Source: Krasilnikoviella flava (GTDB taxonomy: Bacteria; Actinomycetota; Actinomycetes; Actinomycetales; Cellulomonadaceae). From it: a DNA stretch of 64,000 nt. Positions 1-34,951 of this stretch are shown piece by piece (the first letter of the stretch is position 1; every line of letters starts with the position of its first letter). Under the pieces are notes generated by a model. It was not told the DNA's origin. It made no database searches and saw only the letters and a list, made by a program, of their open reading frames with translations. The position numbers and the translations under genes were made by a program. The stretch spans positions 62,001 through 126,000 of the forward strand of contig NZ_FUZQ01000006.1 of NCBI RefSeq assembly GCF_900167525.1. The letters are read 5' to 3'.

Positions 1-1589
<1,589 letters not shown>

Positions 1590-21378: not shown

Positions 21379-21407
21379 TAGTCAGACAACTTCACGACTT
21401 GTATGCT
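21379..21407 (+). promoter_or_regulatory. FCD-GntR operator and promoter of the galactarate dehydratase operon
   Basis: TAGTCAGACAA (21379-21389) matches the FadR/FCD consensus TNGTNNNACNA. TATGCT (21402-21407) is a good -10 box, and the operator covers the -35 region. This fits repression by the GntR protein encoded downstream in the same operon. A second site of the same form lies at 30972-30982. Confidence 0.6.
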
Positions 21408-22611: not shown

Positions 22612-23361
22612 ATGCCCCCGACCCTGAGCGGCGCCCTGGTCGCCGCGCTGCGGGCGCGGATCGTCGACGGCGACATCGCCCCCGGCGAGAAGCTGCCCAG
22701 CGAGACCGCGCTGGCCGCCGAGCACCAGGTCAGCCGCACGGTCGTGCGCGAGGCGATCGCCCGTCTCAACCTCGAGGGCCTGGTCCACACCCGGCGCGGC
22801 AGCGGCAGCTATGCGCTGGCGCCGCCCGCCGGGCCCGACGACGCCGTGCCGGTCGCGCGCTCGCTCGAGGACCGGCTCGGCCTCGTCGACTTCCGGCTGG
22901 GCGTCGAGACACAGGCGGCCGCCCTCGCCGCGGAGCGCCGCTCGGACGCCCACCTCGACGCGCTGGCGGCCCGGCTGCGGGACCTCGACGCCGCGCACGG
23001 ACACCCGGCGACGGCGATGCAGCACGACTTCGCCTTCCACCGGCTCGTCGCCGAGGCGGCCCGGAACCGGTACCTGCTGGAGGCCCTGGACCGGCTCGGC
23101 CCGCAGATGATCGCGATGCCGCGCGGCCGGCTGGACCGGCCCGGCGGAGGCTCGGCCGGCGGAGCGGCGGACGGTGTGACCGCCCCGTCACGCTTCGCCA
23201 CCGTCGTCCACGAGCACCGCGCACTCCTCGAAGCCCTGACGGCGCAGGACCCGCTCGCCGCCGCGGCGGCGATGCGCGTGCACCTCGCCGGTTCGCGACG
23301 CCGGCTCCTCGACGAGACCGGCGCGAGGCGTGAGAACGGGTCCGGCCACTCCCTCAGGTGA
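22612..23361 (+). CDS. GntR-family regulator, FCD subfamily
   Basis: A 249-residue regulator with an N-terminal winged helix (residues about 5-70, LPSETALAAEHQVSRTVVRE) and an all-helical FCD ligand domain. The FCD metal-site residues are visible as DFAFHRLV, VVHEHRALL and MRVHLAGS. FCD-GntR proteins often sense sugar acids. Its position behind the galactarate dehydratase suggests it senses an aldarate and represses this operon, and possibly the kdgD operon, through TNGTNNNACNA sites. ATG at 22612 is the start. Confidence 0.92.
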   Translation: MPPTLSGALVAALRARIVDGDIAPGEKLPSETALAAEHQVSRTVVREAIARLNLEGLVHTRRGSGSYALAPPAGPDDAVPVARSLEDRLGLVDFRLGVETQAAALAAERRSDAHLDALAARLRDLDAAHGHPATAMQHDFAFHRLVAEAARNRYLLEALDRLGPQMIAMPRGRLDRPGGGSAGGAADGVTAPSRFATVVHEHRALLEALTAQDPLAAAAAMRVHLAGSRRRLLDETGARRENGSGHSLR

Positions 23362-23379
23362 TGCATCTTCTGAATCAAT

Positions 23380-23425
23380 CGATGCCGAACCGGTTTTAGA
23401 CAGGTATCACCGGTCTCCCTAGGCT
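23380..23425 (+). promoter_or_regulatory. LysR-type activator site and promoter of the ABC importer operon
   Basis: The 31-bp element 23380-23410 starts CGATGCC and ends with GACAGGTATCAC. It overlaps a -35 box TTAGAC (23396-23401) and is followed after an 18-bp spacer by the -10 box TAGGCT (23420-23425). The same element, with the same -35 position and spacer, occurs at 29930-29960 (minus) and 30927-30957 (plus). The start codon of the binding protein is 56 bp downstream of the -10. Confidence 0.65.
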
Positions 23426-23481
23426 GACGGACGCTCGCCCCGGTACGGGGCTGGTTCCCAAACTCATGAACGACGGAGATC

Positions 23482-24807
23482 ATGGTGAGACGATTCGCCG
23501 CCTTCGTAGGCGCCGCGGCCGTTCTGGCGCTCTCTGCGTGCTCAGGCGCGAGTGCGGCCGTGGAGGTCGAGCAGGCACCAACCGACAAGCAGACCTTGGA
23601 GATCTGGCAGCGCAAGTCACCCGGGGGCCCCTCGGACAAGATCGGCCAGGAGCTCGTCGCGGCATTCACGAAGGCGACCGGCATTCCCGCGACCATGACC
23701 TCGATCTCGGACGAGTTCGAGGTCAAGCTGCAGCAGCGTGCGGTTCAGCGCAACCTGCCCGACGTCGTCATCAACGACACGGCTCAGCTCGGCAACATGC
23801 AGACCCAGGGCCTCCTGCGCCAGATCGATCGGGATGCCATCGAGGGTGCTGACGACGTCAACGAGCGTGCCTGGGACGGCGCCCGCGCCTACGACGGCGA
23901 CTACTACGGCGTCCCGGTGACCGCCCACACGGTGGCGCTCTTCAACCGCAAGGACTGGCGGCAGAACCTCGGTCTTGACGTACCCGAGGACTGGGACTCG
24001 CTCGTGTCGATGTGGAAGGCATACGCCGACGGCGATCCCACCGGGACGGGCGAGAAGGTGGCAGGTCTCGCCCTGCCGGGCACCACCCAGCGCGGGTACA
24101 TGTCCTGGAGCACCTCGACCTACTTCTGGTCGGGCGGCGGCGAGTACTTCGAGGAGACGCCGGACGGCTACCGCTCCGCGGTCGCGACCGACGAGTCCGT
24201 GCGCGCGGCCACGTGGATCCGCGACCTCTCGTGCAAGGCCGACGTGCTGCAGCCGGGGGCCAGCAGCTATGACTCGGGGACCACCAAGGACCTCTTCAAG
24301 TCCGGCGGCGCAGGGTCGTTCCTCGTGGCTCCGTACGAGCTGGCGTCCCTCAAGGAGGCATTGGGGAGCGACCTCGAGGTGCTCACCCCGCCACCGGGTC
24401 CCGCAGGGCTCGTGACACTCGCGGAGGGCAACAACGCGTACCTGATGGCCGGCTCGGCGAACGAGACCGCGCAGGAAGAGTTCGCCGAGTTCATGATCTC
24501 CGCCCAGGGACAGGAGATCGGCATGGCCGGCGACAGGGACGGCAACATCGTCCGGCTGCCCGTCAACTCGACGGTCGACATGGCCGACACACGTGACGAT
24601 CCGGACTGGAACCTGTTCCAGAAGCTCTTCGACGAAAACGGCCGCTACGTGCCCGCCGTCCCCAACTGGAACCCGTTCCTCAACGAGTCCGCCAAGACCC
24701 TCAACGCGCTCATCAGCGACTGCTCGCTCGACGTCCGATCCGAGATGGAGAAGCTCGACGACGTCTTCACGGCCGAGCTCGCCCACCAGGAGGTGCTTGC
24801 CCCGTGA
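23482..24807 (+). CDS. Carbohydrate/acid-sugar ABC importer, substrate-binding lipoprotein
   Basis: A 441-residue family-1 solute-binding lipoprotein. The signal peptide ends in lipobox LSAC near residue 20. The body has the usual ITGIPATMTS-like domain entry, LPDVVINDTAQL, and NAYLMAGSANETAQEEFAEF near the C-terminus, as in CUT1 binding proteins. ATG at 23482 follows ACGGAGA. It overlaps the first permease by four bases and starts an operon ending in an enolase-superfamily dehydratase. Context points to uptake of a uronate, aldarate or oligouronide, but the ligand is inferred. Confidence 0.92.
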   Translation: MVRRFAAFVGAAAVLALSACSGASAAVEVEQAPTDKQTLEIWQRKSPGGPSDKIGQELVAAFTKATGIPATMTSISDEFEVKLQQRAVQRNLPDVVINDTAQLGNMQTQGLLRQIDRDAIEGADDVNERAWDGARAYDGDYYGVPVTAHTVALFNRKDWRQNLGLDVPEDWDSLVSMWKAYADGDPTGTGEKVAGLALPGTTQRGYMSWSTSTYFWSGGGEYFEETPDGYRSAVATDESVRAATWIRDLSCKADVLQPGASSYDSGTTKDLFKSGGAGSFLVAPYELASLKEALGSDLEVLTPPPGPAGLVTLAEGNNAYLMAGSANETAQEEFAEFMISAQGQEIGMAGDRDGNIVRLPVNSTVDMADTRDDPDWNLFQKLFDENGRYVPAVPNWNPFLNESAKTLNALISDCSLDVRSEMEKLDDVFTAELAHQEVLAP

Positions 24808-25745
24808 CCGTCCTGACCCGACCGGAGACCCCGCCCGCGACGCGGCCGGCGTCACCGCCGACCCGTCGGCGGACGTCACGTCGCGAGGGAAAAGTCTGGG
24901 TGCCCTGGCTCTTCCTCGCCCCGGCGCTCGTGCTCTTCCTGTACTTCAAGTTCATCCCGATGGGTCAGGCCGTCGTGATGAGCTTCCAGGACGTCCAGCC
25001 CTACCTGGGCAACTCGTGGGTGGGCACGGCGAACTACAGGGACCTGTTCGCGACCGACGAGTTCGTCGCGGCCCTGTGGCACACCGCGGTCATCGCCGTC
25101 TTCCAGATCACCGGGGCCCTTGTGCTCGGGTTCGCGCTCGCTCTCCTGCTCGAGGGTCAGGCACGCCGGCTGTGGTTCGTCCGCTCCGCGGCGTTCCTAC
25201 CCGTCGTGGTGCCGGTCGCGGTGATCGCCGAGCTGTGGCGCATCATCTACTACCCGACCGAGGACGGGATCGCCAACCAGATCATCGGCGTCTTCCTCAT
25301 GGAGCCGTCCCAGTGGATCAACTCGCCGGACTCGTCGCTGCTCTCGGTGATCCTCGTCGGGATCTGGCGGGACGCCCCCTACAACATGATCATCATCATC
25401 GCCGGTCTGGTCAGCGTCGATCGCTCGCTCTACGAGGCGTCGTCGCTCGACGGGGCCGGGTGGGTGCGTCGAGTGCGGTACGTGACGCTCCCCGCTCTGC
25501 GGCCCGTCATGGTGATCCTTCTGACCCTGGCTGCCATCCGCGCCATGCGGATCTTCACGGAGGTGTTCCTGTTGACCAACGGCGGGCCGAACGGCTCGAG
25601 CGAGGTGCTGATGACGCTCGTGTACCAGCTCGGGTTCGCGCGCAACGAGCTCGGCGTGGCCGCCGCGGGCTCGGTCGTCCTGCTCGTGGCGACGATCGTC
25701 CTGACGCTCGCCGTGCGGGTCGGCTCGAAGAGGAGGAACGCATGA
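24804..25745 (+). CDS. ABC importer permease, MalF type
   Basis: A 313-residue permease with six predicted helices. The cytoplasmic EAA loop is YEASSLDGAGWVRRVRYVTLP-like, at about residues 205-225, and docks the ATPase. The first helix is WLFLAPALVLFLYF. Its GTG start overlaps the binding-protein stop (GTGA at 24804-24807). It pairs with the second permease. No ATPase gene is in the operon; actinobacterial CUT1 systems often share one multi-purpose MsiK-like ATPase encoded elsewhere. Confidence 0.93.
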   Translation: MTVLTRPETPPATRPASPPTRRRTSRREGKVWVPWLFLAPALVLFLYFKFIPMGQAVVMSFQDVQPYLGNSWVGTANYRDLFATDEFVAALWHTAVIAVFQITGALVLGFALALLLEGQARRLWFVRSAAFLPVVVPVAVIAELWRIIYYPTEDGIANQIIGVFLMEPSQWINSPDSSLLSVILVGIWRDAPYNMIIIIAGLVSVDRSLYEASSLDGAGWVRRVRYVTLPALRPVMVILLTLAAIRAMRIFTEVFLLTNGGPNGSSEVLMTLVYQLGFARNELGVAAAGSVVLLVATIVLTLAVRVGSKRRNA

Positions 25746-26608
25746 ACCGCAACCTCGACACCGCGCTCGGGCTCGGGTCGCAGAACCCGGTCTGGCTCAG
25801 GGCGCTCACGGCGCTCGCCTGTGCCGTCGTCGTCCTGCTCTTCGCCGGCCCGCTGGTCGCTCTGCTGGTCGGCGCGTTCTCCGGGTCGCACGACCCGTCG
25901 CACCTCTCGCTGTTCCCGACCGACCTCACGCTCGAGAACTGGAGAGCTGCGCTGGACCGCAACGTGCTGCGGTACCTCGCCAACTCCCTGATCGTCGTCG
26001 GGATCGGGCTCCTGCTCCAGATGGCGGTGTCGGTGCTCGCGGCCTACTCGTTGGCCCGCAAGAAGTTCCGTGGCGCGGGGATCGTTCTCCTCCTGATCAT
26101 GGCGACGATGATGCTGCCCGAGGAGATCCTGGCGATCCCGCTCACCATCGTCCTGTCGGACCTCCCGCTGCTGCACCTCAACATCACGGACTCGCTTCCG
26201 GGGATGATCGTGCCGCTCGTCGCCTGGGGATTCGGGATCATCGTGATGGTCGAGTTCATGAAGGAGGTTCCGCGCGAGCTCGAAGAGGCGGCCCGTCTCG
26301 ACGGGGCGGGCGAGTTCCGGGTGTTCTGGTCGGTGGTGCTCCCGGCGGTGACACCTGCCCTGGGGGTCATCGGGGTGTTCGGCTTCACCATGATCTGGGA
26401 CCAGTACATGCTGCCGCTGCTGGTCGCTTCCGACCCGGAGAACTACACGCTCCCGCTGGCGTTGCGCAGCCTGCGGGCCGACCCGGAAGTGGGCATCGGC
26501 ATCGTGCTGGTCGCCGCGACGCTGGCCATGCTGCCGTCGATCCTCGCCTTCCTCGGGTTCCAGCGTTCCTTCATGCGCGGTATCTCCTCGGGGGCGATCA
26601 AGGGATGA
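25742..26608 (+). CDS. ABC importer permease, MalG type
   Basis: A 288-residue permease. The EAA loop is EEAARLDGAGEFRVFWSVVLP-like, near residues 180-200, and there are six hydrophobic segments. The start ATG at 25742 overlaps the upstream permease stop by four bases, and its own stop overlaps the next gene's ATG (26605-26608). This tight chain of ATGA/GTGA overlaps shows a single, co-translated operon of SBP, two permeases and a dehydratase. Confidence 0.93.
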   Translation: MNRNLDTALGLGSQNPVWLRALTALACAVVVLLFAGPLVALLVGAFSGSHDPSHLSLFPTDLTLENWRAALDRNVLRYLANSLIVVGIGLLLQMAVSVLAAYSLARKKFRGAGIVLLLIMATMMLPEEILAIPLTIVLSDLPLLHLNITDSLPGMIVPLVAWGFGIIVMVEFMKEVPRELEEAARLDGAGEFRVFWSVVLPAVTPALGVIGVFGFTMIWDQYMLPLLVASDPENYTLPLALRSLRADPEVGIGIVLVAATLAMLPSILAFLGFQRSFMRGISSGAIKG

Positions 26609-27849
26609 CGATCATCGACAGCCGTATCACCGACCTGCAGGTCTACCCGCTCGCGTTCTCCGACCCGCCCCTGCTCAATGCTGCGGGCGTGCACGAGCCG
26701 CTGGCTCTGCGCACCCTCGTCCGGCTGCAGGCCGGCGACGTCGTGGCCTGGGGAGAGGGCCGCGGGGACGCGCTGCCGGCGGACGTCGTTCCCGCCCTGT
26801 GCGAGGCCGTGCTCGGCCTCGACGTGTTCGCGACGTCGCGGATCGAGGCCGCCGTCGACACGGTCCTGCGCCGGCTGCGCCCGGACCTCGGAGCACAGGC
26901 GCGGCTGGTGACGTTCGCGCCGATCGAGGTCGCGGCCCTCGACGCCCAGGGAAAGCTGCTCGAGCGGCCCGTGAGCGAGCTGCTCGGCGGTGCGCTCCGG
27001 GACCGCGTCGACTACAGCGCCTACCTCTTCTTCAAGTGGGCCGGGCACCTGGACGGCGAGCCGGACGAATGGGGCGAGGCGATGGACCCGGACGGGATCG
27101 TCGCGCAGGCGAAGCTGCTCGTCGACCGCTACGGGTTCCGGTCGTTCAAGCTCAAGGCGGGTGCGCTGCACCCCGACATCGAGGTGGAGTCGCTGCGTGC
27201 GCTCGCGGAGGCGTTCCCCGGCATGCCGCTGCGCATCGACCCCAACGGGGCGTGGACGCACCAGACCGCGCTCGAGGTGGCACACCGGACCGACGGCCTG
27301 CTCGAGTATCTCGAGGACCCGGTGCTGGGCATCGACGGGATGAGCAGGATCCACGCGGAGACCGGGGTGCCCCTCGCGACGAACATGTGCGTGGTGGAGA
27401 CGGCCCACCTGCGACCCGCCGTCCGGGCGGACGCCGTGCAGGTGCTGCTCAGCGACCACCACTACTGGGGCGGGCTACGCCGTACCAAGGAGCTCGCCGC
27501 CATCTGCGAGGCGATGGACATCGGGGTGTCGATGCACTCCAACTCCCACCTGGGCATCTCCCTCGCGGCGATGACCCACGTCGCGGCGGCGATCCCCAAC
27601 CTCAGCCACGCCTGCGACACCCACTTCCCCTGGAACCGTGCGGACGACGTGGTCACCGAAGGTGGGATCGAGATCGTGGACGGTGCGGTCACGGTGCCGA
27701 CCGGCCCGGGACTGGGCGTCGAGGTCAACCTGGACCGGGTGGCCGAGCTCCACGAGCGGTACGTCGAGTCCGGGCACCGCACGCGCGACGACGGGGGCTA
27801 CATGCGCCGGTGGGACCCGACGTTCACGGACGCGCGCCCGCGGTACTGA
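26605..27849 (+). CDS. Glucarate-dehydratase-like enolase-superfamily enzyme
   Basis: A 414-residue enzyme with the glucarate dehydratase active-site layout: K182/K184 in FKLKAG, D212/N214 in RIDPNGAW, E237 in EYLEDPV, N260 in ATNMCVV, D284 in LLSDHHYWGG and H311 in SMHSNSHLGISLA. The dyad and ligands are complete, so it should be active. It differs from the canonical glucarate dehydratase at 33626 in its N-terminal specificity loops and C-terminal tail. Coupling to an importer suggests it acts on the imported acid sugar or its derivative. Substrate could be glucarate, galactarate, a lactone or another aldonate. Confidence 0.88.
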   Translation: MTIIDSRITDLQVYPLAFSDPPLLNAAGVHEPLALRTLVRLQAGDVVAWGEGRGDALPADVVPALCEAVLGLDVFATSRIEAAVDTVLRRLRPDLGAQARLVTFAPIEVAALDAQGKLLERPVSELLGGALRDRVDYSAYLFFKWAGHLDGEPDEWGEAMDPDGIVAQAKLLVDRYGFRSFKLKAGALHPDIEVESLRALAEAFPGMPLRIDPNGAWTHQTALEVAHRTDGLLEYLEDPVLGIDGMSRIHAETGVPLATNMCVVETAHLRPAVRADAVQVLLSDHHYWGGLRRTKELAAICEAMDIGVSMHSNSHLGISLAAMTHVAAAIPNLSHACDTHFPWNRADDVVTEGGIEIVDGAVTVPTGPGLGVEVNLDRVAELHERYVESGHRTRDDGGYMRRWDPTFTDARPRY

Positions 27850-27862
27850 CGGGTCGTCGTGC

Positions 27863-27905
27863 GCGAAGGCCCCGCCCGGCCGTCATCTCCGGGCGGGGCC
27901 TTCGC
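27863..27905. terminator. Bidirectional terminator hairpin
   Basis: Perfect 17-bp stem: GCGAAGGCCCCGCCCGG (27863-27879) pairs with CCGGGCGGGGCCTTCGC (27889-27905) around a nine-base loop. It lies exactly between the convergent dehydratase and the barrel-like protein gene. Confidence 0.85.
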
Positions 27906-27914
27906 CGTGCCGGG

Positions 27915-29042
27915 TCAGTCGCGCCGGGTCAGCAGTGCCGAGGCCGCCGCCTCGAGCCGCGCCTCCGACAGCAGGCCGAGGTGGTAGACGTAGGCGTCGT
28001 CCACGCGGGCGAGGCCTGCCGGCCATGCGCGCCGGATCGAGTCGGGCGTGGCCGGCGGCATGGCCGAGAGGTACCCGCCAACGCGTCTGCCGGGCAGCCG
28101 ATCCCGCACCGCGCCGACCGTGCCGAGATCGTCCGTCACCAGATGACCGGGCAGGACGACCCCGTCGAACGCCGTGACCGCGTCGTCCAGCGCGGTGAAG
28201 GGGCCGGTCGCCCAGAGGTCGGGTTGGGCATGGACGACGACGCGCGGGACCTGGTCGCACGCGTCCTTCACGGCGGACGCGAGACCAGACCGGGCCTCCG
28301 CCCGGGCGGCGAGAACCGCGACGGACCGGCTGACGTGGTCCTCGGTGGCGCCGTGGTGGCCGGCCTGCTCGGCCGCCAGCCCGGCCCGGACCTCGAGCCG
28401 CAGACGCGGCACGTCGACGTCGTGGTCGGCCAGGAGCCCTTGACAGGCGTCGCAGAAGCAGATCGACAGCAAATTCTCCGCCACGGGGGTCCAGTCGGCG
28501 CCCTGGGTCTTCTCGTGCCGGCCGAGGTGGCTGACACCCAACGGACCCAGGGCTTCCAGCATCAGCCCGTCGACGTCGAAGGACCGCACGACGCCGGCGA
28601 CGAGCCGCCGTGCGTAGTCGCGGACGTCGGGTGCCGCCGGGCAGAGCGCGTACGGGTACCGCTCGCCGAGGACGTTCTGCACAGTGAGCTCGCGTGCGCG
28701 GTTACCAACGGGGGTGCTGTGCGTGAGCACCAGCCACGCCTCGACCCGGAGTCCCGCCTCGCGCGCGGCCCGGGCGGCGCGCAGGAAGGCTCCGGGACCG
28801 ACCCACGGGGCATCGGTGCGCGGCCGCAACGTCGAGCCCGACCAGACCTCGTCGTCGAGCGGCAGGTAGTAGGCAGCGCCGGCGTCGACGACAGCACGGC
28901 GCGGGTGGAGCGGGGTGGCGGCACGCACCGAGTGGTAGGCGGCCGCGATCGCCACGCCGTCGGCGCCGGCCTCGCGAACACGACCGGTGGCCCGGGGATC
29001 GTCGAGGAGGTCCCACGGGTACGTGCAGAACGTCGCGGTCAC
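27915..29042 (-). CDS. Uncharacterised protein coupled to uronate dehydrogenase, possible TIM-barrel enzyme
   Basis: A 375-residue protein of unknown function. It starts with TFCTYPWDLLDD and AYHSVRAATPLHPRR. Later come CPAAPDVRDYARRLV, DGLMLEALGPLG, a conserved-looking RHEKTQG and a CFCDACQ cysteine cluster; these alternating strands and helices look like a TIM barrel with glycosidase- or sugar-isomerase-like loops. No signal peptide. GTG at 29040-29042 overlaps the uronate dehydrogenase stop by four bases (GTGA), so the two proteins are made together. A role in the lactone or oligouronide step of the pathway is a guess. Similar hypothetical proteins exist, but I know of no assigned activity. 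Confidence 0.8.
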   Translation of the reverse strand: MTATFCTYPWDLLDDPRATGRVREAGADGVAIAAAYHSVRAATPLHPRRAVVDAGAAYYLPLDDEVWSGSTLRPRTDAPWVGPGAFLRAARAAREAGLRVEAWLVLTHSTPVGNRARELTVQNVLGERYPYALCPAAPDVRDYARRLVAGVVRSFDVDGLMLEALGPLGVSHLGRHEKTQGADWTPVAENLLSICFCDACQGLLADHDVDVPRLRLEVRAGLAAEQAGHHGATEDHVSRSVAVLAARAEARSGLASAVKDACDQVPRVVVHAQPDLWATGPFTALDDAVTAFDGVVLPGHLVTDDLGTVGAVRDRLPGRRVGGYLSAMPPATPDSIRRAWPAGLARVDDAYVYHLGLLSEARLEAAASALLTRRD

Positions 29043-29890
29043 CAGGCCACGCCGAGCGGACGCTCGCCGTCGGCGAAGGCACCGCCGATCAGCCCGTTGC
29101 CGACGTCGCCCGGGTCGGGGAACGCGTCGGCGTACCGCTCCGCGTCGTCCTGCGGCTCGTAGCCGACGGCCCGTCCCGGCGCGAGGGAGAACCAGCGTCG
29201 GGTGTTGTGCGAGACGGCCCACACAGGGTGAGCCCCCGGGGCGGCGTGCACGGCCGCGGCTTCGATCAGGCGCACGAGGTCGGGCAACGAGAGCCAGGTC
29301 GCCAACGACCGCGGCGAGGTGGGGAGCGGTTCGACGGTGCCGATGCGGGCCACCGTCAGTACCAGATCGTGCCGGTCGGCGTACGCCGAGGCCATGGCCT
29401 CCATCGCGACCTTGCTCACGCCGTAGAGGGAGTCCGGGCGTGGCGGGAGGGTCTCGACCGGCTCGTCGGGAACCGGCCAGAATCCCACCACGTGCGTCGA
29501 GCTCGCGATCAGGCCGTTCCGTACCCGCTCGTCGACCATTGCCTGCAGCAGCGTCCGAGTGCCCTCCACGTTGGCACGCGCGACGTCGGACCACGGGCGT
29601 TCACGGCTGAAGCCACCGAGGTGAACCACCATGTCCACGCCACAGACCGCGCGCCGCACCGCGTCGGCGTCGGTCAGGTCGGCCTGGACCGCGGTCTCCC
29701 CCGGTTGCGGGTCGCTCGGGACCACGTCGAGGAGGACGAGGTCTACCCCTCGATCGCGCAGCAGCGGTCGGATCCCTCGGGCCGCGGCGCCCGCCCCGCC
29801 GGTGATCAGGTACCGCGGTCGTGACGTCGTCCGGCGGTCGGCAGGTGTGATGTCAGCGCTCCTCGTCGGATGGTCCTGTGCGGCGCCCAC
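29039..29890 (-). CDS. udh: NAD-dependent uronate dehydrogenase
   Basis: A 283-residue short-chain extended dehydrogenase oxidising D-glucuronate or D-galacturonate to the aldaro-lactone. The Rossmann loop is TGGAGAAARG (about residues 30-39). The catalytic triad region has S130/S131 in IASSTHVVG and Y156-x3-K160 in LYGVSK. The C-terminal GRAVGYEPQDDAERYAD segment is highly typical of uronate dehydrogenases. GTG at 29888-29890. Transcribed with the downstream uncharacterised gene from a promoter bearing the shared 31-bp element, divergent from lysR. Its product feeds the dehydratases at 21441, 26605 and 33626. Confidence 0.92.
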   Translation of the reverse strand: MGAAQDHPTRSADITPADRRTTSRPRYLITGGAGAAARGIRPLLRDRGVDLVLLDVVPSDPQPGETAVQADLTDADAVRRAVCGVDMVVHLGGFSRERPWSDVARANVEGTRTLLQAMVDERVRNGLIASSTHVVGFWPVPDEPVETLPPRPDSLYGVSKVAMEAMASAYADRHDLVLTVARIGTVEPLPTSPRSLATWLSLPDLVRLIEAAAVHAAPGAHPVWAVSHNTRRWFSLAPGRAVGYEPQDDAERYADAFPDPGDVGNGLIGGAFADGERPLGVAW

Positions 29891-29914
29891 GCCCCGCAGG
29901 CCGCTCGAGGATCG

Positions 29915-29960
29915 ACTCTAGGGATGCGTACCATGCCTGTCCAAGGCTCGAAGGGCATCG
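29915..29960 (-). promoter_or_regulatory. LysR-type site and promoter of the udh operon (divergent with lysR)
   Basis: Read on the minus strand, the 31-bp element (29960 down to 29930) begins CGATGCC and ends TTGGACAGGCATGGT. It contains -35 TTGGAC (29939-29944), then an 18-bp spacer, then -10 TAGAGT (29915-29920). The lysR start is only 45 bp on the other side, the classic arrangement for a LysR regulator and its divergent target. Confidence 0.7.
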
Positions 29961-30004
29961 ACTGATCCAGGGAAAGCATCGAGCAAGGGATCGTGGGGAG
30001 CCGC

Positions 30005-30889
30005 ATGTACACGCTCGAACAGGTTCGGTGCTTCGTCACCGTGGCGGAGGAGCTGCACTTCGGCCGGGCGGCCGAGCGGCTGAGCATGACCCAGCCCCCG
30101 CTGAGCCGCCAGGTGCAGAAGCTCGAGCACGCCGTCGGTGTCGCCCTGCTCGAGCGTGACAACCGGCACGTCGAGCTCACGACGGCGGGCGCGGTGTTCC
30201 TCGGGGAGGCGCGCCGGCTGCTCACTGCGGCCGATGCCGCCCCGGCGCTGGCGCGGCGCATCGCCGCAGGCCGGGCGGGGGTGCTGCGCCTGGGATTCAC
30301 GGCGGCTACCGGCTTCAGCCTGCTAGGCCCCCTGGTGCAGCAGGTCGGCGAGTTGATGCCCGACGTCGACCTGGACCTGCAGGAGCTCGTCACGGTCGAG
30401 CAGATCGAGGCGATCAGGCGCGGAGAGCTGGACCTGGCGCTCGGCCGTCCGCCGTTCGACGACGCGACGTTCGCGTCCCGGCTCCTGCTGTCCGAGGATC
30501 TCGTGCTGGTGGTTCCCGACGGGCACCCGCTCGCCGGGCTCCGGCGTCCCGTCGGCACCGCCGACCTCCGCGATGTACCCCTCATCGGCCACCACCCCAC
30601 GAAGGCCCGGTACTTCTACGACATGGTCGTGCGGTACGTCGACGTCGAGCACGTCAACGTGGTGCACGTCGTGAGCCAGATCCTCACGATGTGCTCCCTC
30701 GTGGCCGCGGGTCGCGGGGTGGCGTTTGTGCCGGAGTCCTCCCGGCTGCTCGGCCTGCCCGGCGTGACGTTCGTCGAGCTCGCGGACGTTCCGCACGGCG
30801 TCGTCGAGCTGCACGCCATCTGGGACCGGGGTTCCAAGAACCCCGCGCTGCACGAGTTCCTGCGCCACCTGCGGGCCGTGCACGACTGA
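30005..30889 (+). CDS. LysR-family transcriptional regulator of the aldarate island
   Basis: A 294-residue LysR regulator. The N-terminal winged helix (residues 1-60) reads LEQVRCFVTVAEELHFGRAA and QPPLSRQVQKLE. A periplasmic-binding-like effector domain follows, with VLRLGFTAATGFSLL at the first strand. ATG at 30005 has GGGAG five bases upstream; a GTG 12 bases earlier is less likely. The shared 31-bp sites in front of udh, the ABC importer operon and kdgD make it the probable activator of all three. The co-inducer is likely a uronate or aldarate (inference). Confidence 0.93.
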   Translation: MYTLEQVRCFVTVAEELHFGRAAERLSMTQPPLSRQVQKLEHAVGVALLERDNRHVELTTAGAVFLGEARRLLTAADAAPALARRIAAGRAGVLRLGFTAATGFSLLGPLVQQVGELMPDVDLDLQELVTVEQIEAIRRGELDLALGRPPFDDATFASRLLLSEDLVLVVPDGHPLAGLRRPVGTADLRDVPLIGHHPTKARYFYDMVVRYVDVEHVNVVHVVSQILTMCSLVAAGRGVAFVPESSRLLGLPGVTFVELADVPHGVVELHAIWDRGSKNPALHEFLRHLRAVHD

Positions 30890-30926
30890 CCCCGCATCGG
30901 GGACTCGATACCCGTCGAGCATGATC

Positions 30927-30972
30927 CGATGCCATTCCGGGCTTGGACAGGCATCGTGAACCCTTCTTAAGT
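30927..30972 (+). promoter_or_regulatory. LysR-type site and promoter of the kdgD operon
   Basis: The element 30927-30957 contains GATGCC-N16-GGCATC, the most symmetric of the three copies. It overlaps -35 TTGGAC (30943-30948), followed by an 18-bp spacer and -10 TTAAGT (30967-30972). Layout is identical to the sites at 23380 and 29960. Confidence 0.7.
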
Positions 30973-30982
30973 TGTCCGACGA
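30972..30982. promoter_or_regulatory. FCD-GntR operator at the kdgD promoter
   Basis: TTGTCCGACGA fits TNGTNNNACNA and starts at the last base of the -10 box, where a bound repressor would block initiation. It matches the TAGTCAGACAA site in front of the galactarate dehydratase. This promoter would then integrate LysR activation and GntR repression. Confidence 0.55.
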
Positions 30983-31020: not shown

Positions 31021-31965
31021 GTGGCCACGTACTCACCCTCGGAGCTCGCCGCCACCCTCAAGGAGGGTCTGCTGTCGTTCCCGGTCACCCCGTTCACCGC
31101 GGACGGCGAGGTCGACGACGCCCGGTACGCGGAGCACATCGCGTGGCAGACGAGCTTCGGGATCGGCGGGCTCTTCGCCGCCGGCGGCACGGGCGAGGGA
31201 TTCAGCCTCACGCCGGCCGAGTCCGCACGGGTGGTGGCGCTGGCTGTCGAGGCGGCGGAGGGCGCCACCCCGGTGCTCGGCAGCGCCTCCGGCAACACCG
31301 CTCAGGCCGTCGAGAACGCGCGGGCCGCCGAGGCGGCGGGGGCCGAGGGCGTCCTGCTGCTGCCCCCGTACCTCACCGACTGCGACCAGGACGGACTGCT
31401 CGAGCACGCCTCCGCGGTGTGCGCCGCGACGAGCGTCGGCGTCATCGTCTACAACCGCGCCAACGCCGTCTACTCCGCACGGACCGTGGCCCGGCTCGCC
31501 GACCGGCACCCGAACTTCATCGGCTTCAAGGACGCCCTCGGAGACATCGAGCAGCTCACGCGCGTGGTCGCGACGAACGGCGACCGCCTCTTCTACCTCG
31601 GCGGGCTGCCCACCGCGGAGACCTTCGCGCTGCCGCTGCTGCAGCTCGGCATGAGCACCTACTCCTCGGCGATGTACAACTTCGTGCCCGAGTTCGCGCT
31701 CGAGTTCTACCGGGACGTGCGGAAGCTCGACGGTGCCGCCGTCACCGAGAAGCTCACGCGGTTCGTGCTGCCCTACCTCGACATCCGCGACCGGGCCAAG
31801 GGCTACGGCGTCTCCATCGTCAAGGGCGGCCTGCGGGCCGTCGACCGCGACCTGGGCGGCGTGCGCCCCCCGCTGCAGGACCTCACCGCCCGCGACGTCG
31901 ACGACCTGCGCGCGCTCGTCGACGCCGCCGGCATCCGCCCGGCCGACGCCACCCTCGCCCGCTGA
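31021..31965 (+). CDS. kdgD: 5-dehydro-4-deoxyglucarate dehydratase (decarboxylating)
   Basis: A 314-residue DapA/NAL-superfamily TIM barrel. The Schiff-base lysine is K170 in IGFKDALGD and the catalytic tyrosine Y144 in [21 protein letters not shown] is the carboxylate-binding loop. The KdgD-typical N-terminus reads [13 protein letters not shown]. It removes water and CO2 from 5-keto-4-deoxyglucarate, giving 2,5-dioxopentanoate (alpha-ketoglutarate semialdehyde). GTG at 31021 follows AGGAGG. First gene of an operon with the semialdehyde dehydrogenase and glucarate dehydratase. Confidence 0.95.
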
Positions 31966-32006
31966 CCGCCGACGCCCGCCACCCGCGCACCCCGGAGGGA
32001 AACCCC

Positions 32007-33629
32007 ATGACCGTCACCGCCGTCCTCGCCGGGCACTCGATCGTCGCCGGGGAGCCGTTGGTCGGCGCCGCCGGCACGGCCGTCGCCCACGACCCCGCCA
32101 CCGACGAGCCGCTGGAGCCCGCCTACTCGCTGCTCGCCGTCGACCAGCTCGCCCACGCCACGGCCGCCGCCGAGGAGGCCTTCGCGTCGTTCTCCGCCCT
32201 CGCCCCCGAGCCGCACGCCCGCTTCCTCGAGCGCGCCGCCGAGAACCTCGAGGCCGCCGGCTCCGCGATCGTCGCGCGCGCGATGCAGGAGACGGGCCTG
32301 CCCGAGGCCCGGCTCACGGGCGAGCTCGCACGCACCACGGGTCAGCTGCGCCTGTTCGCCGCCGTCGTGCGCCAGGGGGACCACCGCGGCGTCCGCGTCG
32401 ACCCTGCCCGGCCCGACCGCGCTCCCCTGCCCCGCGCGGACATCCGCCAGCGCCAGGTCCCCGTCGGCCCCGTCGCCGTGTTCGGCGCCAGCAACTTCCC
32501 GCTCGCGTTCTCCGTGGCCGGCGGCGACACCGCCTCGGCCCTCGCGGCCGGGTGCCCGGTGGTCGTCAAGGCGCACGGCGCCCACCCGGGCACCGGCGAG
32601 CTCGTCGGGCGCGCCGTCGCCGACGCCGTCGCCGCCGAGGGACTGCACCCCGGCGTCTTCTCGCTGGTCTACGGCCCCGGGGCCCAGGTGGGGCGGGCGC
32701 TGGTGACCGACCCGGCCATCCGGGCGGTCGGGTTCACCGGCTCCCGCTCGGGCGGCCTCGCGCTCGTCGCCGCGGCCGCCGCCCGCCCCGTGCCGATCCC
32801 CGTCTACGCCGAGATGAGCTCGGTCAACCCGGTGGTCGTGCTGCCGGGGGCGCTCGACCCGGACGAGGGCGCCGACGTCGACGCCCTCGCCGCGGCGTAC
32901 CTGGCGTCGGTGACCGGCTCGTCCGGCCAGCTCTGCACTGCCCCCGGGATCCTGCTGGCGCCGCGGTCCGAGCGCGGCGACGCGTTCGTCGACGCCGTCC
33001 GCCGCGCCGCCGAGGCGGCCACGGGGCAGACCATGCTCACCGCCGGCATCGCGCGGGCGTGGCACGACGGCGTGGACGCGCTCGGGGCCCAGGACGGCGT
33101 CGAGGCCGCCGGCACCGGGACCCCGGGCGCCACCCGCAACGCGCCCGCGCCGTCCGTCTTCGTCGCCGACGTCGCCACCTTCCTCGCCAACCCCGTGCTG
33201 GAGGCCGAGATCTTCGGCGCCGCGTCCCTGGTCGTGCGGTACTCGGGCGACGACGAGCTCCTCGCCGCCGTCGGCCGCCTCGAGGGGCAGCTCACCGCGA
33301 CCCTCCACCTCACCGAGGCGGACGCGGCCACGGCCCGCCGCCTGCTGCCCGTGCTGGAGCGCAAGGCCGGTCGCATCCTCGCGAACGGCTGGCCGACCGG
33401 CGTCGAGGTCGGCCACGCGATGGTGCACGGCGGCCCTTTCCCCGCGACGTCGGACGGGCGGACCACGTCCGTCGGGACGCTGGCGATCGACCGGTTCCTG
33501 CGGCCCGTCGCCTACCAGGGCCTGCCGGACTACCTGCTGCCGGAGCCGGTGCGCCCGGACAACCCGTGGCGCCTCACCCGGCGCGTGGACGGCGTGCTCC
33601 GGGCGGCGGAGACGGAGGCGGCACGGTGA
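32007..33629 (+). CDS. Alpha-ketoglutarate semialdehyde dehydrogenase
   Basis: A 540-residue aldehyde dehydrogenase. Catalytic C310 is in [10 protein letters not shown], the general base E269 in [10 protein letters not shown]163 in [10 protein letters not shown], and K188 in [11 protein letters not shown]. The KAHGAHPGT and [13 protein letters not shown] strings are typical of the semialdehyde dehydrogenases that end the glucarate pathway. It oxidises the KdgD product to 2-oxoglutarate, joining the TCA cycle. ATG at 32007 follows GGAGGGA, 41 bp after kdgD. Its stop overlaps the next gene's GTG by four bases. Confidence 0.94.
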
Positions 33630-34951
33630 GCGCCCCGACCGTCGCCCGGGTGCAGGTCGTCCCTGTCGCGGGGCACGACTCGATGCTGCTCAACCTGTCC
33701 GGCGCGCACGCGCCGTTCTTCACCCGCAACATCGTGGTCGTCGAGGACTCCGACGGCCGTACCGGGCTGGGCGAGGTGCCGGGCGGGGAGAAGATCCGCG
33801 CGACGATCGAGGAGGCCGCGACCCTCGTGGTCGGGCAGCCGGTCCCGCGGCTCCGGTCCGTGCTGCGCGGGGTCTCGGCCCGGTTCGCCGGCCGGGACGC
33901 GGGCGGGCGCGGGAACCAGACCTTCGACCTGCGCACCACGGTGCACGCCGTGACCGGGCTCGAGTCCGCGCTGCTCGACCTGCACGGGCAGGACCTCGGC
34001 GTGCCGGTGGCCGAGCTGCTCGGCGAGGGCCAGCAGCGCGACGCCGTGCCGATGCTCGGCTACCTCTTCTACGTCGGCGACCCGGACGCCACCGACCTGC
34101 CGTACCTGCGCGAGCCCGACGCGCCCGACGCCTGGTCCCGGCTGCGCCGCGAGGCCGCGACGACGCCCGACGCCGTCGTCCGCCTCGCCGACGCCGCGCG
34201 GGAGCGCTACGGCTTCCGCGACTTCAAGCTCAAGGGCGGCGTGCAGGCGGGCGACCTCGAGGTGGACGCCGTCGTCGCGCTCAAGGAGCGGTTCCCCGAC
34301 GCACGCATCACGCTCGACCCCAACGGCGGCTGGCTGCTCGACGACGCCGTCCGGCTCGGGCGCCGGATGCGGGGCGTCGTGGCGTACGCCGAGGACCCGT
34401 GCGGGGCCGAGGGCCGGTTCTCCGGCCGCGAGGTGATGGCCGAGTTCCGCCGGGCGACAGGGCTGCCCACCGCGACCAACATGATCGCCACGGACTGGCG
34501 CGAGCTCGGGCACGCGATCCGGTCGGACGCCGTCGACATCCCGCTGGCCGACCCGCACTTCTGGACCATGGCCGGCTCCGTCCGCGTCGCGCAGCTGTGC
34601 CACGAGCTCGGCCTCACCTGGGGCTCGCACTCCAACAACCATTTCGACGTCTCGCTCGCCATGTTCACGCACGTGGGCGCCGCCGCCCCGGGGGAGATCA
34701 CCGCGCTCGACACGCACTGGATCTGGCAGGACGGGCAGGGCCTCACCACCCGGCCGCTCGAGATCTCCGGCGGCGAGATCCGGGTGCCGACCGCGCCCGG
34801 GCTCGGCGTCGAGCTCGACCCCGACCGCCTCGCCGAGGCGCACGAGCTGTACCTGGAGCACGGCCTCGGCTCGCGGGACGACGCCGTCGCGATGCAGTAC
34901 CTCGTGCCCGGCTGGGAGTTCGACCCGAAGCGCCCCTGCCTGGTCCGGTAG
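33626..34951 (+). CDS. gudD: Glucarate dehydratase
   Basis: A 441-residue canonical glucarate dehydratase. Active-site residues: K201/K203 in FKLKGG, D231/N233 in TLDPNGGW, E256 in YAEDPCG, N285 in [10 protein letters not shown]309 in LADPHFW and H335 in [14 protein letters not shown]. The N-terminal [12 protein letters not shown] and C-terminal [20 protein letters not shown] strings are characteristic of the GudD isofunctional group. It makes 5-keto-4-deoxyglucarate, the KdgD substrate. GTG at 33626 overlaps the dehydrogenase stop (GTGA). It is the last gene of the kdgD operon. Confidence 0.96.

What the first reader, a model, noticed from the sequence alone, without database searches (positions are those of the whole stretch)
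23380..30982. A shared 31-bp promoter element marks a LysR regulon of three operons
Three promoters in the aldarate island carry the same 31-bp element (CGATGCC-N..-GACAGGYAT): in front of the ABC importer operon (23380-23410), udh (29930-29960, minus) and kdgD (30927-30957). In each it overlaps a -35 box (TTAGAC, TTGGAC, TTGGAC) followed after exactly 18 bp by a -10 box (TAGGCT, TAGAGT, TTAAGT). One copy sits between lysR and its divergent neighbour. Identical geometry in three places is strong evidence for one activator, most likely the LysR protein at 30005.
Basis: partly seen in the sequence, partly recalled or inferred. Interest (0 to 1): 0.85.

Follow-up and report, generated by a model that had tools for sequence, protein, structure and literature searches.

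The report
LysR-controlled promoters for sugar-diacid breakdown
Three promoters in this bacterium carry the same control sequence, which comparison with relatives shows to be the inner part of a probable binding site for the neighbouring LysR-type switch protein: a well-supported but textbook-type gene switch for breaking down sugar diacids.

Summary
In detail: CGATGCC-N12-GACAGGYAT occurs at the three stated places and nowhere else in the 4.85-Mb genome with 0 or 1 mismatch.

Aligning 69 non-redundant sites reveals, outside the pattern used to pick them, a nearly invariant ATRC-N7-GYAT dyad upstream: the LysR-type T-N11-A spacing, near -65 of the predicted start. The better -35 is TRGACA, one base on; all 69 sites have TANNNT 18 or 19 bp after TTRGAC. 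The full 48-bp pattern finds the three sites without mismatch and one place with three.

Of 70 LysR loci (13 supplied training sites), 64 carry a site, 57 beside lysR; reversed controls none. The rival GntR has its own palindrome, and 13 genomes have LysR and sites but no GntR match. In relatives sites mostly precede kdgD or a TctC-type receptor; here udh fills the slot beside lysR. Binding, activation and inducer are inferred. New regulon, known kind of mechanism.

The parts
23361..23375 (+). Recognition dyad (RBS) of the ABC-importer promoter, ATGC-N7-GAAT (T-N11-A)
   Evidence: position; conserved ATRC-N7-GYAT in 69 sites
23382..23407 (+).
   Evidence: sequence; inference from the 5/6 match
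23420..23425 (+). -10 box TAGGCT
   Evidence: TANNNT at 18 or 19 bp in 69 of 69 sites
23482..26608 (+). ABC importer: binding protein 23482-24807, permeases 24804-25745 and 25742-26608
   Evidence: Pfam, for the binding protein and first permease; the second permease was not scanned, named from its place and its match in one relative (L165)
26605..27849 (+). Enolase-superfamily protein (glucarate dehydratase-like, far below the NCBIfam cut-off), last gene of the ABC operon
29965..29979 (-). Recognition dyad (RBS) of the udh promoter, ATGC-N7-GGAT; 25 bp before the lysR ATG on the other strand
29933..29958 (-).
29938..29943 (-). -35 box TGGACA
   Evidence: inference
29915..29920 (-). -10 box TAGAGT
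30005..30889 (+). LysR-type regulator, BenM/CatM/AlsR-like
   Evidence: HTH_1 and LysR_substrate; NCBIfam AlsR best but below cut-off; BenM match 1.3e-35
30908..30922 (+). Recognition dyad (RBS) of the kdgD promoter, ATAC-N7-GCAT
30929..30954 (+).
30944..30949 (+). -35 box TGGACA
   Evidence: inference
30968..30973 (+). -10 box TAAGTT (reader: TTAAGT 30967-30972)
31021..34951 (+). kdgD 31021-31965, aldehyde dehydrogenase 32007-33629, gudD 33626-34951
   Evidence: for kdgD (subfamily cut-off passed, equivalog just under) and gudD (793.9 bits, cut-off 828.7); the aldehyde dehydrogenase was not scanned, name from context
21382..21406 (+). Separate GntR-type palindrome before the talGalD-gntR operon (not part of the LysR regulon)
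22612..23361 (+). GntR/FCD regulator: rival regulator, judged not to own the element

Best explanation
The three promoters form one regulon of the LysR-type protein at 30005-30889. A tetramer holds a recognition dyad ATRC-N7-GYAT centred near -65 and, further downstream, a three-half-site activation region (ATRC, GKCT, GYAT at 11-bp steps) that runs to about -26. Without inducer the second dimer probably sits on the lower pair (GKCT/GYAT), covering the -35 box TRGACA. With inducer it would step one half-site (11 bp) upstream to ATRC/GKCT, freeing the -35 box and helping RNA polymerase. The inducer is most likely an aldarate or its dehydration product. At the udh promoter the same dyad lies just upstream of lysR on the other strand, so LysR probably limits its own synthesis. 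Shown: sequences, positions, genome-wide specificity, cross-species conservation, association with LysR. Inferred: binding, the step, activation, inducer, autoregulation.
For: Only three sites in the genome. 69 non-redundant sites were picked with a pattern covering positions 0 to 27; outside it, so not by construction, the upstream dyad has T 99% and A 100% at the T-N11-A positions, and TANNNT stands 18 or 19 bp after TTRGAC in 69 of 69. A matrix trained on 17 sites of L031-L043 without the window scores the window's three at 58.1, 50.7 and 48.8, next best 6.1, reversed window at best 15.3; over 70 LysR loci (13 of them the training loci) 64 have a site of at least 20, 57 within 300 bp of lysR, 106 sites in all, 0 on the same loci reversed. 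Held-out test: 50 of 57 other LysR loci with a site, 43 beside lysR, 80 sites against 1 on reversed loci. All 14 of 221 family genomes with the strict motif are among the 16 of 221 with the LysR orthologue. 60 of 61 LysR loci with kdgD or gudD in the fetched stretch have a site, 4 of 9 without. The recognition-helix segment QPPLSRQ is shared with BenM, whose Site 1 is T-N11-A within ATAC-N7-GTAT and which shifts from Sites 1+3 to Sites 1+2 on induction (PMC6628147, passages). Five of the six loci without a site read QPPLSRL there.
Against: No binding, expression or effector data. In the family the island travels as a unit: motif, LysR, GntR and kdgD occur in almost the same genomes, so co-occurrence there cannot single out LysR. 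The right half of the dyad is imperfect in two of the three window sites (GAAT, GGAT). The conservation of positions 0 to 27 is partly built in by the picking pattern (up to 3 mismatches). The middle half-site GKCT is a poor match to either half of the dyad, so the 11-bp step is a model. 6 of 70 LysR loci have no site at the threshold, and in 7 of the 64 with one it is not within 300 bp of lysR. The QPPLSRL loci are all of one genus, hence perhaps one event. Loci from two collections overlap, so 70 is not 70 independent genomes.
Confidence: 0.82

Rival explanations
1. The GntR/FCD protein at 22612-23361, encoded immediately upstream of the ABC operon, binds the element and represses the three promoters.
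For: It lies next to one of the sites, and in the family its genomes (14 of 221 at 1e-40) are exactly the 14 with the strict motif. The element covers the -35 box, as a repressor site could.
Against: G021 and G112 have LysR and sites of one to three mismatches but no GntR match at 1e-30. Of 14 further genomes, chosen because no gntR showed in their fetched stretch, 11 have no GntR match at 1e-30 anywhere and 3 have one elsewhere; all 11 have a site. Before talGalD there is a different palindrome, TCATACARGT-N5-ACTTGTATGA: at most 5 of 20 mismatches in 19 of 25 loci with gntR, 0 of 11 without, none of the single shuffles. The element carries a LysR-type T-N11-A dyad.
Confidence: 0.06
2. LysR binds the sites but mainly as a repressor relieved by the inducer, with little positive activation.
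For: The lower half-site pair covers the -35 box TRGACA, which at 5 of 6 (by eye) is not a poor -35. For PbenA the authors of PMC6628147 suggest that de-repression may be a significant part of activation (passages).
Against: The dyad near -65 with a second region reaching the -35 is the usual activator layout (general knowledge and PMC12609908, passages).
Confidence: 0.2
3. The element is a repeated promoter or mobile sequence, shared by recent copying and not because of a regulator.
For: Three copies within 7.6 kb of one island.
Against: The spacers differ between copies while the half-sites are kept, and the same half-sites are kept in 69 non-redundant sites from several families; within the 125 positions examined little beyond about -23 to +45 is conserved.
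Confidence: 0.02

Closest known systems
BenM/CatM operators of Acinetobacter (benA, catB), LysR type
   Same: Site 1 is T-N11-A inside ATAC-N7-GTAT; three sites; repression with Sites 1+3, activation with Sites 1+2 (PMC6628147, passages). The window protein aligns with BenM over residues 4-270 and shares the QPPLSRQ segment.
   Different: Here the lower two sites would share one degenerate half-site; in the PbenA model it is Site 2 that overlaps the -35, here Site 2 ends beside it and Site 3 covers it. The genes are for aldarate breakdown and the host is an actinobacterium. Whether Sites 2 and 3 overlap in benA was not checked.
AlsR and CbnR (LysR type)
   Same: AlsR is the best NCBIfam match of the protein (219.7 bits, cut-off 430); CbnR (1ixc) matches at 4e-24.
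   Different: Below the AlsR cut-off; neither is known to control aldarate genes (recalled).
GguR regulon of Halomonas (galactarate/glucarate, TctABC, Udh)
   Same: Same kinds of genes in one regulon: aldarate enzymes, a TTT-family transporter, and in one strain an extra operon with Udh (PMC5507952, passages).
   Different: GguR is called a GntR-family factor there; here the regulator is LysR type and a GntR protein has its own likely operator.

Membership tests
LysR-type transcriptional regulator (LTTR) | N-terminal HTH_1 and C-terminal LysR_substrate domains | tested here: met
   78.1 and 141.5 bits against cut-offs 26.6 and 28
LysR-type transcriptional regulator (LTTR) | Recognition site with T-N11-A in a dyad | tested here: met
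   T at -20 in 99%, A at -8 in 100% of 69 sites, outside the picking pattern; present in all three window sites
LysR-type transcriptional regulator (LTTR) | Recognition site near -65 and second site reaching the -35 box | tested here: met
   with a start assumed 7 bases after the -10 box; no mapped start
LysR-type transcriptional regulator (LTTR) | Divergent target gene sharing the regulator's upstream region | tested here: met
   udh/lysR in the window; 40 divergent sites within 300 bp of the lysR start in the 70 loci
LysR-type transcriptional regulator (LTTR) | Small-molecule inducer alters DNA binding | not testable with these tools
   needs purified protein
BenM/CatM/CbnR-type operator | ATAC-N7-GTAT-like dyad at Site 1 | tested here: met
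   as ATRC-N7-GYAT in the 69 sites; in the window only kdgD fits fully (ATAC-N7-GCAT), the others end in GAAT and GGAT
BenM/CatM/CbnR-type operator | Sites 2 and 3 with inducer-dependent shift | tested here: inconclusive
   half-sites at 0, 11 and 22 allow it, the middle one is degenerate; the shift itself is not testable here
AlsR (NCBIfam NF045775) | Score above the curated cut-off | tested here: not met
   219.7 against 430
GguR-type aldarate regulator (GntR family) | The regulator is a GntR-family protein | tested here: not met
   the regulator assigned here is LysR type

The most novel reading that the evidence does not exclude
The operator is a five-half-site ladder (starts at -21, -10, 0, +11, +22) in which the second LysR dimer moves by exactly one half-site, 11 bp or about one helical turn, using the middle GKCT in both states, so that one conserved sequence encodes both the repressing and the activating position; and this switch, kept across several actinobacterial families, has been re-used by exchanging the operon behind it (TctC transporter in relatives, udh in this genome).
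Probability: 0.35. Interest if true: 0.6.

Novelty: new member of a known kind. Interest (0 to 1): 0.42.

Why it matters
It gives a precise, testable operator for aldarate use in a large group of actinobacteria, with base-level predictions for both states of a LysR-type switch, and names the regulator, its probable targets and its probable inducer class. An alignment of 69 non-redundant natural operators gives more comparative weight to the sliding-dimer layout than a single promoter does. It could also serve as a glucarate-type sensor in the laboratory.

Tried and rejected
A first motif string had one base too many and two gene frames were wrong; mended. The 31-bp element alone looked like a dyad ATGC-N18-GCAT or GYAT-N6-ATRC, neither with T-N11-A; the likely recognition dyad appeared only when 50 bp upstream was aligned. 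Family-level co-occurrence was considered as proof of LysR and rejected, because GntR and kdgD occur in almost the same genomes. The loose motif (up to 1 mismatch) matched 39 of 221 genomes; 35 of its 50 listed places lack TTRGACA and I take them for chance. The automatic first-gene picker often took a wrong frame and is replaced, which names the best-scoring reference match on the same strand in about 1.5 kb downstream (107 distinct sites at score 20 or more: kdgD 53, TctC 34, unassigned 7, enol2 3, gudD 3, SBP 2, garR-like 2, udh 1, lysR 1, talGalD 1). Four matches were dropped by hand before the 88-site and 69-site counts (one each in L171, L190, L206; in L186 the other-strand reading of a kept site), because they showed no promoter layout; 88 became 69 by leaving out near-duplicates (38 or more of 42 bases alike) and any site too near the end of a stretch. 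The PDB search for the neighbour of udh gave no match better than E = 0.28. Paper searches showed in their listings no actinobacterial LysR regulon for glucarate; subscription papers and RegPrecise were not searched.
Full report
1. Observation. The element CGATGCC-N12-GACAGGYAT is at the three stated places; the expected number by shuffling is 0.01. In the whole genome (4,846,016 bases in 10 contigs) there are three exact matches, none with one mismatch, and five with two, one of which is the kdgD site read from the other strand. Three tighter patterns give only these three sites at up to 2 mismatches, only these three at up to 3, and the three plus one place with 3 mismatches; the reversed-pattern controls gave 2, 0 and 0.

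2. Surroundings.

3. Relatives. LysR relatives were found in named genomes (24 loci, of which 19 are actinobacterial by record title: Isoptericola, Promicromonospora, Kocuria, Zafaria, Saccharothrix, Streptomyces, Janibacter, Kibdelosporangium), in 16 of 221 genomes of the family at 1e-50 and in 47 of 396 of the order at 1e-70. I fetched 52 stretches: all 47 order matches outside the window's genome, four family genomes and one stretch with only the ABC operon. With the 19 named actinobacterial loci this makes 70 LysR loci; the five distant loci L050-L054 were left out of the matrix scans. The two collections overlap (for instance one Janibacter record comes twice), so loci are not independent; sites were therefore made non-redundant before conservation was counted.

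4. The real element. Sites were picked with ATGCN10TTRGACANGYATCR at up to 3 mismatches, so conservation at positions 0 to 27 is partly built in; what lies outside is not. The blocks are YGATRC-N7-GYATCA, then ATRC, then GKCT, then TTRGACA-N-GYATCR, then TANNNT. ATRC-N7-GYAT at -21..-7, wholly outside the picking pattern, is the T-N11-A dyad of LysR-type recognition sites; T is 99% and A is 100%. The half-sites begin at -21, -10, 0, 11 and 22. All 69 sites have TANNNT 19 bp (56) or 18 bp (13) after TTRGAC, again outside the pattern. Reading the -35 box as TRGACA (5 of 6 to the sigma-70 consensus, by eye) the spacers are 18 or 17. With a start 7 bases after the -10 box (assumption) the dyad is centred near -65.

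5. Tests. A matrix from 17 sites of L031-L043 only, without the window, scores the window's sites 58.1, 50.7 and 48.8; the next place in 64 kb scores 6.1 and the reversed window at best 15.3. Over 70 LysR loci it finds 106 sites at 20 or more in 64 loci, 57 with one within 300 bp of lysR, and none on the reversed loci; 13 of the 70 loci supplied the training sites. A shorter matrix trained on 13 sites and tested on 57 other LysR loci found at least one site (15 or more) in 50, within 250 bp of lysR in 43, with 80 sites against 1 on the reversed loci. Where kdgD or gudD lies in the fetched stretch, 60 of 61 loci have a site; where neither does, 4 of 9.

6. LysR or GntR. In the family the two cannot be told apart by presence: strict motif 14 of 221, GntR the same 14, LysR 16, kdgD 14 of which 13 are among the motif genomes. 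The two extra LysR genomes, G021 and G112, have sites of one to three mismatches and no GntR match at 1e-30. Of 14 further genomes, chosen because no gntR showed in their fetched stretch, 11 have no GntR match at 1e-30 and 3 have one elsewhere; all 11 have a site, some only at three mismatches from the strict pattern. A conserved palindrome stands before talGalD in 19 of 25 loci with gntR (at most 5 of 20 mismatches) and 0 of 11 without; in the window this is at 21382-21406 with 3 mismatches. In the window no place outside the three scores above 6.1, so none precedes talGalD. The LysR recognition-helix segment is QPPLSRQ as in BenM; among loci with a site the 12 commonest variants (51 of 64 loci; the rest were not printed) read QPPLSR followed by Q or, once, H, while five of the six loci without a site read QPPLSRL, all in one genus.

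7. Mechanism. BenM and CatM bind Sites 1 and 3 without effector and repress, and Sites 1 and 2 with effector (PMC6628147, passages seen); the general RBS/ABS shift is described in PMC12609908 (passages), which also notes that not all LysR proteins keep T-N11-A. The layout here allows the same: the dyad at -21..-7 as Site 1, 0..14 as Site 2, 11..25 as Site 3, the last covering the -35 box. The middle half-site is degenerate, so this step is inference. The genes behind 107 distinct sites are mainly kdgD (53) and TctC (34), with 7 unassigned (TctC identified by Pfam in 9 of 10 proteins tested, the tenth being a garR-like dehydrogenase). The common substrate class is thus aldarates, and udh under a site is seen in the window only. 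In the eight relatives whose lysR-divergent protein was tested it is TctC; in this genome that slot holds udh, and the ABC importer has its own site, as it does in one other family genome, G187 (L165).

8. What it is. The protein is a LysR-type regulator by domains; it is not an AlsR by the curated cut-off. The regulon resembles the GguR regulon of Halomonas in content, but GguR is called a GntR-family factor (PMC5507952, passages). In the paper searches named under Tried and rejected I saw, in listings, no report of this regulon. I file it as a new member of a known kind.

Noticed in passing
window 27915-29043, minus: ORF of about 376 aa directly after udh without any Pfam or NCBIfam match at 1e-3 and with no PDB sequence match better than E = 0.28; none shown by tblastn at 1e-15 in the LysR loci of relatives.
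   Followed up: partly
window 21382-21406: Conserved GntR-type palindrome TCATACARGT-N5-ACTTGTATGA before talGalD-gntR, in 19 of 25 loci that have gntR near talGalD.
   Followed up: partly
L031, L040, L161, L164, L168, L193, L202, L205, gene divergent from lysR: In these relatives the slot that holds udh in the window holds a TctC-type solute receptor under the same site. Whether the window's genome has TctC elsewhere was not searched.
   Followed up: partly
L177, L178, L184, L187, L189: LysR homologues of one genus, with no site and no kdgD/gudD in the stretch; five of the six no-site loci read QPPLSRL in the recognition helix: perhaps a change of specificity.
   Followed up: no
L032-L034 and other LysR loci, lysR start: The recognition dyad ends one base before the lysR start codon (placed by homology) in 22 of 40 divergent sites (23 bp from the ATRC at 0), which suggests a leaderless, self-limited lysR message. 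In the window the gap is 25 bp.
   Followed up: no
G000:C2:96693-96740: The only other place in the genome within 3 mismatches of the 48-bp pattern; not examined, perhaps chance.
   Followed up: no
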